Assembly: GCA_002238605.1 (NCBI GenBank)
Contig: MPMR01000006.1
Span: 62,001-126,000 of the forward strand
DNA from: BD2-11 clade cluster bacterium bin43
GTDB lineage: Bacteria > Gemmatimonadota > Gemmatimonadetes > Longimicrobiales > Gaopeijiaceae
Direction: 5' to 3'
Length of the DNA stretch: 64,000 nucleotides
Shown here: positions 39,295 through 44,558 of the stretch, piece after piece
Layout of the letters: every line of letters begins with the position of its first letter
Numbering within the stretch: position 1 is the stretch's first letter
Notes under the pieces: model-generated
Told to the model about the DNA's origin: nothing
The model's input: only the letters and a program-made list of their open reading frames with translations
Database searches by the model: none
Made by a program: the position numbers and the translations under genes

Positions 39295-39909
39295 CTATCT
39301 CCGTGCCTGATGTTGAGCGAAGTCGTAAAGCGCCTGGAGGTTGTCCTTCGCCCGTTGCATTGAGTGAGGATGGTTCTCGTCGAACGGATTCCCGAACCAG
39401 AGATGAGGAGTCACTTCCATGATCCTGGGTTCTCCCGAACGCGTCAACGTGACCCTCATGCGGCAGCGTCCCCGATACCCGCGCTTGGGATCTAGGCAGT
39501 TCCTCGCCCGGAGCAGCGCCTGCCTCCATTCCTCTGCACCAAGTTGATCCAGAGTAATAGAGGCAATACGACCTTCCTTGATCGGGGGACGGTGCTGGAT
39601 TTGCCAAGCGTCCCGTCTCCAATTCATGGTAACCGTCTCGGGTCTCGGAACCTTGTCGCGACACCTCAGGAGGAGTGGACGGGAGAGTTCCCGCTCGATT
39701 AGTCGCGCTACGGGCCAGCCGTCGTACTTCATACCCTCCAAGTTGACTCCCAACCAAGCAGTAGTACCATCGTGACTGGCGTTCCACTGCACGCCCTCGA
39801 CCCCATCCGAGAGGCCATACACGGGATTGCCAAACTCCCGCCCATCGCATTCAAACATCTCCCTGAAGAGATCCATCACGACTGCGACTTGCTGGTTCAA
39901 CACCCTCAT
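39295..39909 (-). CDS. Unknown protein, has truncated relative at 44.3 kb
   Basis: A 204-residue protein without a domain I recognise. The N-terminal 60 residues (MDLFREMFECDG, EGVQWNASHDGT, AWLGVNLEGMKYDGW) match the shorter frame at 44,247-44,558 (IGLFRDLFDCDG, DDVQWNAGYFRSG, ATLGVNLDE). So this is a real protein family present twice. The remainder is basic and Trp-rich (MNWRRDAWQIQHRPP), with no enzyme motif. It is a single minus-strand gene beside an IS3 remnant. Confidence 0.6.
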   Translation of the reverse strand: MRVLNQQVAVVMDLFREMFECDGREFGNPVYGLSDGVEGVQWNASHDGTTAWLGVNLEGMKYDGWPVARLIERELSRPLLLRCRDKVPRPETVTMNWRRDAWQIQHRPPIKEGRIASITLDQLGAEEWRQALLRARNCLDPKRGYRGRCRMRVTLTRSGEPRIMEVTPHLWFGNPFDENHPHSMQRAKDNLQALYDFAQHQARR

Positions 39910-40512: not shown

Positions 40513-41313
40513 CTACTTCTTCAGAGCTGTCATGGTCACTGCCAAAACGCATGTGATGAGAACGGTTGCACATCCTGTGCGACCACCAAACTCCTCATCC
40601 AATTGCTGGCGCGTCTTCAAGCGGTCGATAGCCTCGCTGGCTTGCTGTTTGGTTCGGATTCTCCGGGGTTTGCCGCCCAGGCTCGAGATGTAGTCCAGTT
40701 GCCGCTGTGTGGGCGGATCGAGCGCTTTGGGGTTGGCAGTCCAGTGGTCGCCTGGAGCGCTTGCTACCTGCTCACGCGACAAGCGATTCAACATGCCTGC
40801 GAGCGTGACCGTGGCCAGCGCGTCGTTCAGTGGATCATGTACTGCGCCGACAAAGGACTTGAGCGACATGCGGGTAAGAGCGTTGGGAAGCGACGGCGGG
40901 TATCCCCATATCCCTCGAAGCGCGTTGTGCACGCAGTAGCTCCGTTTGCGATGAAATGTCTTGAATCCGTGGCGTCTTAGCTCCGCGTTCAAGACGAGCT
41001 TGTCGAAACGGACGTTGAAGCCGATCAGCGGGCGATCGCCGACGAAATCGGTGAGCTCTTGGGCGATCTCTCCGAAATCGCCAAGACCCTCCACATCCTC
41101 GTCGCTGATCCCATGCACCCGAGATGCAGCTACCGGAATCGGCACGCCGGGATTCAGCGTGGCTTCGAAGGTTTGCGTCTCCTGTTCCGCGTCGACGGTG
41201 AGGTCGGCGAGCACTATCGCCATCTTCACAATCCGATCTTGCGCTGGATCGAGCCCCGTGGTCTCGCAGTCGATCGCCGCAACTTCGCTCAGGTCGTCAA
41301 ATGGGGCAGCCAT
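40513..41313 (-). CDS. DnaQ-like DEDDh 3'-5' exonuclease with C-terminal membrane helix
   Basis: A 266-residue protein. The exonuclease core has the first Asp/Glu in AAIDCETTGLDP (D15, E17), the second Asp in IGFNVRFDKLVL, and His/Asp in HDPLNDALATV, the DEDDh set. After the core, PTQRQLDYISSLGGKP looks like a small nucleic-acid-binding helical module. The last 20 residues form a hydrophobic helix (ATVLITCVLAVTMTAL), unusual for this family and suggesting membrane attachment. It is transcribed toward an IS3 remnant and could form a unit with the two membrane genes upstream on the same strand, 380 bases away. Confidence 0.8.
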   Translation of the reverse strand: MAAPFDDLSEVAAIDCETTGLDPAQDRIVKMAIVLADLTVDAEQETQTFEATLNPGVPIPVAASRVHGISDEDVEGLGDFGEIAQELTDFVGDRPLIGFNVRFDKLVLNAELRRHGFKTFHRKRSYCVHNALRGIWGYPPSLPNALTRMSLKSFVGAVHDPLNDALATVTLAGMLNRLSREQVASAPGDHWTANPKALDPPTQRQLDYISSLGGKPRRIRTKQQASEAIDRLKTRQQLDEEFGGRTGCATVLITCVLAVTMTALKK

Positions 41314-41529: not shown

Positions 41530-41713
41530 CGCTGGCGACGACATGGCGCGCCAGCTGTCCGCGCTTTTCGATGACGTGTCTGGCCCTGAGGACATCGCCC
41601 TCCCCACCTGCTCGATGAACTCCGCGCCCTTTCCGAATTCGATGAACATCCGCCCCCAGAGCGTCGAAAACCATCATTTGGCCGAACTTCTAACCGACAA
41701 TCAGCCGCTCGGC
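41530..41713 (+). pseudogene. Rpn-family C-terminal remnant
   Basis: The plus strand encodes GDDMARQLSALFDDVSGPEDI, comparable with the Rpn C-terminal motif, followed by rearranged MNSAPFPNSMN (from the CGTGEEFIERV region) and the HHLAELLTDNQPL sequence shared with the 33.8-kb remnant. It overlaps the 3' end of the minus-strand gene at 41,690. Confidence 0.5.
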
Positions 41714-43144
41714 GAGCAGAGCCTTCCATCCATCCTCCAGGCGCTGATGAAGCAGTCCGTCGCGTTCGGCGGCGAGCTTCATGAGTGATAGCATCCGCTT
41801 CGCAAGTGTCACGAATTGGGCCAGGTTGATCGCCATCGGATTCCAGCCGTACAGTGCGGTCTTCAGGATGTTAGCGGATGCCAGGGCTCCATGAGTCAGG
41901 GCCTGCATCTGTTCCCGCTTCAGTCTCTCCGAGGTTTCCACCTCGCTGGATTCCGAATCGGTCGCGCAGGCCCGAATCCCGTGGTACGCCCACAGGATGA
42001 GCTCGGCGATCGCGGGCGAGATCTTCATGGTCATGAAGTGCCGAAGGTCGTAGCCGTTGCCGTACATGTACCGTGCAACATCCTTGACCGGTACTGGATC
42101 GCCCCCCTCCCTCAGGGTGAACCCGGACTTCGAACTGACGAGCTGGAAAGGTGCCAGAAAGGGTGGTGGAAGGCCCTGCGGTGTGAAGACATCCGAGAAT
42201 CCGTGGATGACCACCTTGACCATGGCCTCAAGGACGTTGGATGTGCCTCCATGACCGGGCACTTTGATGACCCGCCACGCACCGGACTTGTCAATAAACC
42301 TGCAGGTTCCTGAGAGGATGTCACCTACCCCGAACACGAGACCGAAGAGAGGATCGTGGCCAAGAGCGGCAAGGCGGTGGACGTTGGGCGTCAGCCCGAC
42401 CTTCGGGATAATGACATCATAAGGCACCTTGGCCCATTTCTCTGCGGCAGTGGTCAGCTCGGCGATCCACTGTTGAAACGCGTTGCGCTCAAGGTCGTCA
42501 GAGCCCTTCATCGGAGCGAGCTTCTTCGATTGCTCCTTCATCCAAGCCGTCAGTGGGCTTCCGCGCTGAGGCTGTCCCTTGAAGCTCCCACCGGGCGTCG
42601 CGACCAGCAGATAGTCCGTCATCGCCCCGACGAGCACCGCCAGCGCGACCATACGGAGGTCCCAGCGGTCCCACGGGGCAGGGCGGAACTCCGCGGCGAA
42701 TCGGCGTCGGATCTCGGCCGCCAGGTGCGGCGGCACCAACTGTGAGAGGGGATCGCCGGTCACCTCGATCCCGTGATCGGCAATATACCGTTCCACGTTG
42801 CGGAGATACGATTCCCAGTTCCCGCCTACATCCGGTAGCACAAGGTCGCCTGACGGATCGGTCGGCTGACGATCAACCCTCGTTTCCTGGACCGAGGGCG
42901 GATCATGGGCCGCAACATCAGCGGAGGTACGCCCCTCGGCCCGTGGGCGCTCCGAGTCGGCATCGGCGTGGATCTGCTCGATCATCGCCTCCAGGCGTGA
43001 CAGCTGGTCGCACTGCCGGGCAGACTCCGATTCGAGGACGTCTACCTGGCTCTCGAGCGTTCGCAGGGCGCCGCTCAGGGCATCGAGCTGGAGCCGCTGA
43101 GCGACAGCCGCCCACTCAGCTTCCGTCTTCGTGCTCTTGTTCAT
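41690..43144 (-). CDS. Unknown protein, second gene of TerB-like membrane operon
   Basis: A 484-residue protein starting at 43144, overlapping the upstream gene by 4 bases (ATGA). The first 60 residues form a coiled coil (LSGALRTLESQVDVLESES). A linker and a folded region follow, with hydrophobic segments LRMVALAVLVGAMTDYLLVA, DPLFGLVFGVGDILSG and ISPAIAELILWAYHGI. A short conserved-looking piece LAALGHDPLFGLVFG stands out. I do not recognise a family. The C-terminus ends within sequence shared with an Rpn remnant, so the last few residues may not be original. Coupling to the TerB-like gene implies joint action at a membrane. Confidence 0.65.
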   Translation of the reverse strand: MNKSTKTEAEWAAVAQRLQLDALSGALRTLESQVDVLESESARQCDQLSRLEAMIEQIHADADSERPRAEGRTSADVAAHDPPSVQETRVDRQPTDPSGDLVLPDVGGNWESYLRNVERYIADHGIEVTGDPLSQLVPPHLAAEIRRRFAAEFRPAPWDRWDLRMVALAVLVGAMTDYLLVATPGGSFKGQPQRGSPLTAWMKEQSKKLAPMKGSDDLERNAFQQWIAELTTAAEKWAKVPYDVIIPKVGLTPNVHRLAALGHDPLFGLVFGVGDILSGTCRFIDKSGAWRVIKVPGHGGTSNVLEAMVKVVIHGFSDVFTPQGLPPPFLAPFQLVSSKSGFTLREGGDPVPVKDVARYMYGNGYDLRHFMTMKISPAIAELILWAYHGIRACATDSESSEVETSERLKREQMQALTHGALASANILKTALYGWNPMAINLAQFVTLAKRMLSLMKLAAERDGLLHQRLEDGWKALLAERLIVG

Positions 43145-44256
43145 CGGGACGATTGACCGGCTGCCTCCGCCTCCAGATCCCGCTCGAAGCCGCCAGCTCT
43201 CTCCCCCAGCCTCGCGAGCGCGCCGGCCGACCGGGACAACAACGTCACCTCGCGGAACAGCCTGTCGATGGCGGCACGGTTCCTGTCCGTCTCTTTGGAT
43301 AAGTCCGCGACGCGTGCGCCGAAGAACGATATGTCTTCGCCAAGGTTGATGATCGCCCGCTGGTGGATGCGCAGCACCTCCTGCAGCATCAGCTCCCGCA
43401 GAGACGCCCGGTGGCGCTCGGACCGACTCAGAACCCACCGCACGCCCTTATGCGCGGCTCCACCGGCAACTATGACCACGCCGATGCCGGTGAGCATGGA
43501 GGACAGACCGAGCATGCCACCCAGTCCGAGGGCCGCGAGTCCGGAAGTGATACCGGCAGCGCTGAGACCGGTCACGCTGCCGCCAACGTAGATGGCCGCA
43601 ATCGGAACTCCGACCCCTGTTGCTTTTGCCGCCATCGATTTCGCCGCCTCTCTGATCTGGGAGTCCGAGAGTTTGCCGGCGAAGATCTCTTCCTCCTTTT
43701 CGCAGGCTTCCTCCAGGAACATGACCATATCGTCCTCCAGCTGCAGCAGTTCGGCCAGCCGGCGGATTCCGCGTTGCCCGCGAACGAAGTCGCTGGAGGT
43801 CGCACGGCGAACCCGTATCGCATCCTTCATCAGCGAACACTTCAGGTCCAGCTTCTTGTCGGATATTCGCGAGGGAACACATTCGAGCATCTGTCCAACT
43901 TGAGCCTTGCCCTCCAGGCTCTGCGGATCCTCAAGGTACGACCGAACCGCCCGTCGCACGTCGGCGCTGCACTTCATCCGTGTCATCTGCAGCTGGATCT
44001 CGCACAGCTCCCGTTCGTCGATCCGGTTGTCGTCGAAGTGCACGAGCCAGACGAGGACGCTCAGGTAGCACTTCTTGAGGGCGTCCGGCGGATCCTCGAC
44101 GAGGGTGTATTCGGGCGGCGCCGTCTTCGTCTCGTTTGCGTCCCGGCCCAGTACCCTGTCGGCACCCGGGAGCTTTTCGGCAGTCACTTTGACTGCGCGC
44201 CACCCGGCTTGAACAAAGCCTATGCCCTGTTCCTTGATCTCATCCATTGGAACCAT
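43141..44256 (-). CDS. TerB-like protein with glycine-zipper membrane hairpin
   Basis: A 371-residue protein. Residues 55-190 look like a TerB-type helical domain: LKKCYLSVLVWLVHFDDNRI, then DERELCEIQLQM with the acidic D-x-x-I-D-E-R-E pattern. Residues about 215-285 are very Gly/Ala-rich (VPIAAIYVGGSVTGLSAAGI, TSGLAALGLGGMLGLSSML, GIGVVIVAGGAA), a probable membrane hairpin or pore-type zipper. A helical, coiled-coil C-terminus follows. TerB-like domains occur in stress and phage-response systems. Gene function is unknown; the overlap with the downstream gene shows a two-gene unit. Confidence 0.65.
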   Translation of the reverse strand: MVPMDEIKEQGIGFVQAGWRAVKVTAEKLPGADRVLGRDANETKTAPPEYTLVEDPPDALKKCYLSVLVWLVHFDDNRIDERELCEIQLQMTRMKCSADVRRAVRSYLEDPQSLEGKAQVGQMLECVPSRISDKKLDLKCSLMKDAIRVRRATSSDFVRGQRGIRRLAELLQLEDDMVMFLEEACEKEEEIFAGKLSDSQIREAAKSMAAKATGVGVPIAAIYVGGSVTGLSAAGITSGLAALGLGGMLGLSSMLTGIGVVIVAGGAAHKGVRWVLSRSERHRASLRELMLQEVLRIHQRAIINLGEDISFFGARVADLSKETDRNRAAIDRLFREVTLLSRSAGALARLGERAGGFERDLEAEAAGQSSR

Positions 44257-44558
44257 TGGTCTCCCGGATTCGCGTGAAGGGAACCAAGCTACGGGGCGAA
44301 GCAGGGGAGGTCCAGCGATCCGCCTTGGCGTCCGCGGAGGAACTGATTCGAGCCTTGCGACGGGTCATGATCGGTCTCTTTCGTGATCTGTTTGACTGCG
44401 ACGGACGGAGATTCGGCGGTCCTTCGCTTGGCCGAATCGGAACCTCGGATGGGATGGACGACGTGCAGTGGAACGCGGGTTACTTCCGGTCAGGGCAGAC
44501 CGCGACGTTGGGGGTCAACCTTGACGAAACCATCCCTGAGGGCCCGGAGATGGCTTAA
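44247..44558 (+). pseudogene. Truncated relative of the 39.3-kb unknown protein
   Basis: The frame encodes IGLFRDLFDCDGRRFGG, DDVQWNAGYFRSG and ATLGVNLDETIPEG, matching the first 60 residues of the 39295-39909 protein, then stops at 44558 against the 3' end of the P-loop kinase gene. About two thirds of the protein is missing. It is divergent from the TerB-like gene and overlaps its start by a few bases, so the start is uncertain. Confidence 0.6.

What the first reader, a model, noticed from the sequence alone, without database searches (positions are those of the whole stretch)
41690..44256. Undescribed two-gene operon: TerB-like glycine-zipper membrane protein plus large unknown partner
The genes overlap by ATGA. 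The first has a TerB-like helical domain and a long Gly/Ala-rich membrane hairpin of pore type. The second has an N-terminal coiled coil, several hydrophobic segments and a distinctive HDPLFGLVFG element, and matches no family I know. They lie among toxin-antitoxin genes, IS scars and a DnaQ-like exonuclease with its own membrane helix on the same strand. TerB domains are known in stress and phage-response contexts. A membrane-acting defence or abortive-infection unit is a reasonable guess.
Basis: partly seen in the sequence, partly recalled or inferred. Interest (0 to 1): 0.7.

Follow-up and report, generated by a model that had tools for sequence, protein, structure and literature searches.

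The report
Compact Bunzi-type anti-phage gene pair
This two-gene unit is a slimmed-down version of Bunzi, a published bacterial anti-phage system whose mechanism is unknown; comparing relatives suggests that a conserved membrane-hairpin protein and its conserved partner form the core, while the attached sensor domain can be swapped.

Summary
In detail: two co-oriented genes on the minus strand overlap by ATGA. The first product has a TerB fold and a 57-residue uncharged Gly/Ala-rich stretch; the second has an N-terminal helix and an HDPLFGLVFG element. But the pair is not undescribed. PADLOC identifies BnzA (E 1e-75) and BnzB (E 5e-66, full length), the two genes of the Bunzi anti-phage system (Millman 2022).

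What differs is the architecture. This BnzA lacks about 150 N-terminal and 95 C-terminal residues of the canonical profile, and its BnzB relatives from Gemmatimonadota, Acidobacteriota and one gammaproteobacterial genome form a fully supported clade. Some of their neighbourhoods carry SspABCD, SoFic or other defence genes.

Across 28 BnzB proteins, 25 positions are at least 93% conserved, including D162, D177, D243, H256, H263, D264, H314 and D318. The gene before BnzB nearly always carries the same hairpin (GLSAAGITSGLA), alone or behind TerB, ADP-ribosylglycohydrolase or Sel1 domains. I infer an abortive-infection device in which a sensor domain releases a membrane hairpin under BnzB control. 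No defence activity was tested here, BnzB matched no solved fold, and the mechanism remains inference.

The parts
43141..44256 (-). bnzA, compact form: N-terminal segment 1-50, TerB domain about 50-200, uncharged Gly/Ala-rich stretch 212-268, C-terminal helices 286-368
   Evidence: PADLOC BnzA E 1.2e-75 over profile 155-449 of 544; TerB fold Z 11.9; hairpin and C-terminal helix homologous to short partners, HHalign 97%
41690..43144 (-). bnzB: N-terminal helix 3-61, low-confidence linker 65-104, conserved core about 156-471
   Evidence: PADLOC BnzB E 5.1e-66, profile 2-502 of 504; 25 positions conserved in at least 93% of 28 relatives; AlphaFold core mostly pLDDT 85-95
43141..43144 (-). ATGA overlap of the bnzA stop and the bnzB start
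   Evidence: read directly; bnzA matches run into the bnzB start in L005, L008 and L009 as well
43534..43569 (-). GLSAAGITSGLA motif of the hairpin, shared with nearly all partners of BnzB; single occurrence in the window
   Evidence: motif scan; partner survey
42329..42358 (-). HDPLFGLVFG element of BnzB (H263 D264 P265 G268)
   Evidence: alignment of 28 BnzB

Best explanation
The unit is a compact Bunzi anti-phage system. BnzA carries a TerB sensor or regulatory domain followed by a Gly/Ala-rich membrane hairpin and helices; BnzB is the conserved partner. Most likely BnzA is held inactive at the inner membrane together with BnzB; a phage-induced signal acting on the TerB domain (in other relatives on a different N-terminal domain) releases or oligomerises the hairpin, which permeabilises or remodels the membrane and stops the infection. 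Shown by computation: membership, pairing, TerB fold, hairpin homology, invariant BnzB polar residues. Inferred: membrane insertion, trigger, abortive outcome, the role of BnzB. Membership alone I hold at about 0.95; the mechanism at about 0.5.
For: PADLOC BnzA and BnzB hits. bnzA directly precedes bnzB in all intact close relatives and a hairpin gene precedes nearly all distant bnzB. DNA similarity around the pair stops near the end of bnzB and at or shortly beyond the start of bnzA. TerB fold. Hairpin plus C-terminal helix shared with 165-195 aa partners of distant BnzB proteins, HHalign 97.3%, E 2e-11. The partner N-terminus varies while hairpin and BnzB stay: none, TerB, ADP-ribosylglycohydrolase E 1.5e-34 in L055, Sel1 E 1.5e-18 in L062. 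Neighbours SspABCD, SoFic, PDC-M48B. Published reviews list TerB for Bunzi and give its mechanism as unknown (PMC10952713; PMC12926258).
Against: No activity was measured. The hairpin region has AlphaFold pLDDT below 40 and only one strong hydropathy window. No fold match or known enzyme for BnzB, so its role is a guess. In a sample of 298 genomes of the phylum only 8 carry either family.
Confidence: 0.6

Rival explanations
1. BnzB is the effector: a membrane-associated enzyme, perhaps a metal-dependent hydrolase, using the conserved Asp/His set D162, D177, D243, H256, H263, D264, H314, D318; BnzA is sensor and membrane anchor.
For: The Asp/His residues are conserved in 27 or 28 of 28 BnzB proteins that are down to about 20% identical. 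BnzB is the most constant component while the partner varies.
Against: No profile or fold match to any enzyme. A comparison with the YdjM family (PF04307), suggested by similar H-D motifs, gave HHalign probability 0.2%.
Confidence: 0.28
2. BnzA works like a GTPase-free relative of bacterial dynamin paddles (LeoBC): the hairpin remodels or seals membranes against phage rather than killing the cell.
For: Weak PADLOC match of BnzA and of short partners to LeoBC across hairpin and helices, E 0.009 to 0.001; a Gly-rich paddle is described in LeoA (PMC4159319).
Against: Scores are at the level that composition alone can give; neither gene encodes a GTPase.
Confidence: 0.1
3. The pair is not for defence but is a selfish or stabilising element of mobile DNA.
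For: Short-partner forms are common on conjugative plasmids (474 records) and occur in phage and viral-contig records; the window copy lies among IS remnants.
Against: Bunzi was identified as anti-phage by Millman et al. 2022 (cited in PMC10952713); chromosomal neighbours include Ssp and SoFic.
Confidence: 0.07

Closest known systems
Bunzi (BnzA, BnzB; Millman et al. 2022)
   Same: Both proteins, gene order, TerB domain, hairpin, near full-length BnzB match
   Different: BnzA here lacks about 150 N-terminal and 95 C-terminal residues of the canonical profile, which Lactococcus and Vibrio BnzA match almost end to end
Short-partner BnzB systems on IncHI2-type plasmids and on viral contigs
   Same: Same BnzB core and hairpin plus C-terminal helix
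   Different: Their partner has no TerB domain; many have an additional small ORF between the two genes
PDC-M09A candidate family (PADLOC)
   Same: Partner of BnzB in Priestia and in L058, with a similar Gly-rich stretch
   Different: Different N-terminus and weak sequence similarity
LeoBC dynamin-like proteins
   Same: Weak match over hairpin and helices
   Different: No GTPase domain in BnzA
TerB proteins (2ou3, 2h5n); Shango also has TerB (PMC10952713)
   Same: Fold of BnzA residues 48-204
   Different: TerB domain below Pfam detection; fused to a membrane stretch

Membership tests
Bunzi | BnzB protein | tested here: met
   PADLOC BnzB E 5.1e-66, profile 2-502 of 504
Bunzi | BnzA protein | tested here: met
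   PADLOC BnzA E 1.2e-75, but only profile 155-449 of 544
Bunzi | adjacent genes in one operon | tested here: met
   ATGA overlap; bnzA directly precedes bnzB in all intact close relatives
Bunzi | TerB domain in BnzA | tested here: met
   VIA Z 11.9 to 2ou3, Foldseek probability 0.99
Bunzi | full canonical BnzA length (an architectural feature of the profile, not known to be required) | tested here: not met
   Profile positions 1-154 and 450-544 unmatched; the open frame holds only 407 codons, so no start that adds 150 residues exists
Bunzi | anti-phage activity | not testable with these tools
   Needs an experiment
YdjM (PF04307) membrane hydrolases | homologous profile | tested here: not met
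   HHalign probability 0.2% against 34 YdjM-family sequences
LeoBC dynamin-like | GTPase domain | tested here: not met
   No GTPase family in Pfam or NCBIfam scans of either protein

The most novel reading that the evidence does not exclude
BnzB and a Gly-rich hairpin protein form a minimal, widely distributed effector core. Evolution has put different sensors before the hairpin (none, TerB, an extra N-terminal domain plus TerB, ADP-ribosylglycohydrolase, Sel1), so Bunzi is one branch of a larger modular family, with BnzB a possibly enzymatic membrane protein of unknown fold.
Probability: 0.45. Interest if true: 0.55.

Novelty: new variant of a known kind. Interest (0 to 1): 0.33.

Why it matters
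No mechanism for Bunzi was found in the literature available here. The compact form and the short-partner relatives point to what is likely essential (hairpin, C-terminal helix, BnzB with its Asp/His set) and what is exchangeable (the sensor), which turns an open question into a short list of mutants. It also documents Bunzi in Gemmatimonadota and Acidobacteriota.

Tried and rejected
YdjM/PF04307 membership of BnzB, prompted by similar motifs: HHalign negative. Fold of BnzB: Foldseek and VIA gave no match that stands out in the PDB, none in BFVD, and a profile search of PDB sequences was empty; this does not show a new fold. Pfam DUF726, DUF533 and Phage_holin_3_6 hits to BnzA are below their cut-offs. 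DnaQ-like gene as a third component: no DNA similarity to it in the relatives' loci. A viral-contig scan with BnzA found no relative. A resemblance of the hairpin to eukaryotic IFI6-type proteins came to mind but was not tested. Literature searches found no mechanistic paper on Bunzi; the original paper is not held.

Full report
Observation. The two genes are as described. bnzA is 43141-44256(-), 371 aa; bnzB is 41690-43144(-), 484 aa; they overlap by ATGA. Codon scoring supports both. The genome holds one copy of the second gene.

Identity. Pfam, NCBIfam and PHROGs give nothing significant. PADLOC names gene 2 BnzB (E 5.1e-66, profile 2-502 of 504) and gene 1 BnzA (E 1.2e-75, profile 155-449 of 544). 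These are the two genes of Bunzi, attributed to Millman et al. 2022, with TerB listed as its domain (PMC10952713) and an unknown mechanism (PMC12926258). The finding is therefore a known kind of system.

Pairing. In nine loci found among 84,980 species genomes and in genomes of the same phylum bnzA lies directly upstream of bnzB wherever both are intact. DNA similarity around the pair ends within about 20 bases of the bnzB stop and, upstream, between late bnzA and about 105 bases before its start; separate shared segments elsewhere are chromosomal stretches or repeats, and L003 also shares part of a flanking 204-aa gene. Fragments exist: L017 has bnzA fused in frame to a bnzB tail after an internal deletion, L010 has an internal deletion in bnzB, and L018, L021 and L002:5204-5287 hold bnzB tails only. 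These look like decayed copies.

Architecture of BnzA. The AlphaFold model (6 sequences, mean pLDDT 52) is most confident at about 60-195. Its best PDB matches are TerB structures 2ou3 (Foldseek probability 0.99; VIA Z 11.9, rmsd 4.9, 144 aligned) and 2h5n (Z 9.8, rmsd 3.1, 120 aligned); the next unrelated chain has Z 5.2. Residues 212-268 carry no charge and are rich in Gly and Ala; confidence there is low, so the hairpin is inferred. Lactococcus and Vibrio BnzA match the PADLOC profile almost end to end; the window protein lacks the first 150 residues or so and the C-terminal 95. No start that long is possible (open frame 407 codons), and the close relatives aligned share the short form.

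Modular partners. BnzB relatives on plasmids, phage records and viral contigs are preceded by proteins with the same motif, GLSAAGITSGLA, or a close variant. Most partners have only 165-195 aa: the hairpin and a C-terminal helix. Profile comparison of these with the window family gives HHalign probability 97.3%, E 2.3e-11 over BnzA about 218-345. In L055 the hairpin follows an ADP-ribosylglycohydrolase domain (PF03747, E 1.5e-34), in L062 Sel1 repeats (E 1.5e-18), and in Priestia and L058 the partner is PDC-M09A-like. Exceptions: no hairpin gene was recognised before the L061 bnzB, the Streptococcus suis phage record has a degenerate one, and a Salmonella plasmid copy has an IS3 element in its place. 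The short partner occurs in 474 plasmid records, mostly near-identical copies. Salmonella Bunzi has been reported as frequent on IncHI1 plasmids (PMC11305592), so some of these may already be counted as Bunzi.

BnzB. Over 28 proteins, D177, D243, H256, H263, P265, G268, H314, D318, G324, P326, P328, G364 and N440 are among the invariant residues, and D162, D264 and S317 are nearly so. The AlphaFold core is confident (pLDDT mostly 85-95, pTM 0.60), but no PDB or viral structure matches convincingly. A suspected link to YdjM hydrolases failed at profile level. Conserved Asp and His suggest a metal or catalytic site; this is inference.

Phylogeny. In a tree of 28 BnzB the seven proteins with TerB-type partners form one clade (100/100), and partner types are clustered (7 changes, the minimum; shuffled mean 13.8). 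The nearest relative of the window BnzB is from a gammaproteobacterial genome (84%), which suggests transfer between phyla, if that assembly is clean. Its BnzA is only 69% identical, whereas L002 has 80% for both.

Neighbourhood. Relatives' flanks include SspABCD (in L003), SoFic, PDC-M48B and Mad3-type matches; the SspA and DndA hits are probably the same cysteine desulfurases. In the window itself an IS transposase, a MqsA-like antitoxin, a YhgA-like gene and a DnaQ-like exonuclease lie around.

Conclusion. A compact Bunzi system, membership about 95% sure. Abortive infection by a releasable membrane hairpin is the best reading, at about 0.5; an enzymatic BnzB is the main rival.

Noticed in passing
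window 39295-39909 and 44364-44525; L003 6055-6696: A 204-aa family without any Pfam or PADLOC match (DLFRxxFxCxGRxFGxPxxG...VQWNA) lies on both sides of the Bunzi pair (one intact, one remnant) and again close before it in L003.
   Followed up: partly
window 40513-41313: DEDDh (DnaQ-like) exonuclease with a C-terminal hydrophobic helix; also matches PADLOC candidate PDC-S48, E 5e-27.
   Followed up: partly
window 29992-33322: A 708-aa SEC-C protein and a divergent 261-aa gene with no family, next to IS remnants; codon score is low for the length, so possibly foreign.
   Followed up: no
L055 2265-3644: ADP-ribosylglycohydrolase fused to the Bunzi-type hairpin, next to bnzB, on a viral contig.
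   Followed up: partly
L017 593-1735: In-frame fusion of bnzA with a bnzB tail after deletion of most of bnzB.
   Followed up: partly
L003 6886-9434 against window 41690-44256: bnzB 84% but bnzA 69% identical to the window, while L002 has 80% for both: the two genes may have recombined separately.
   Followed up: no
L045 655-996, L048 3018-3416, L049 3442-3840, L051 1531-1917: Small ORF (113-132 aa) between the hairpin gene and bnzB in many short-partner systems, without family match; possible third component there.
   Followed up: no
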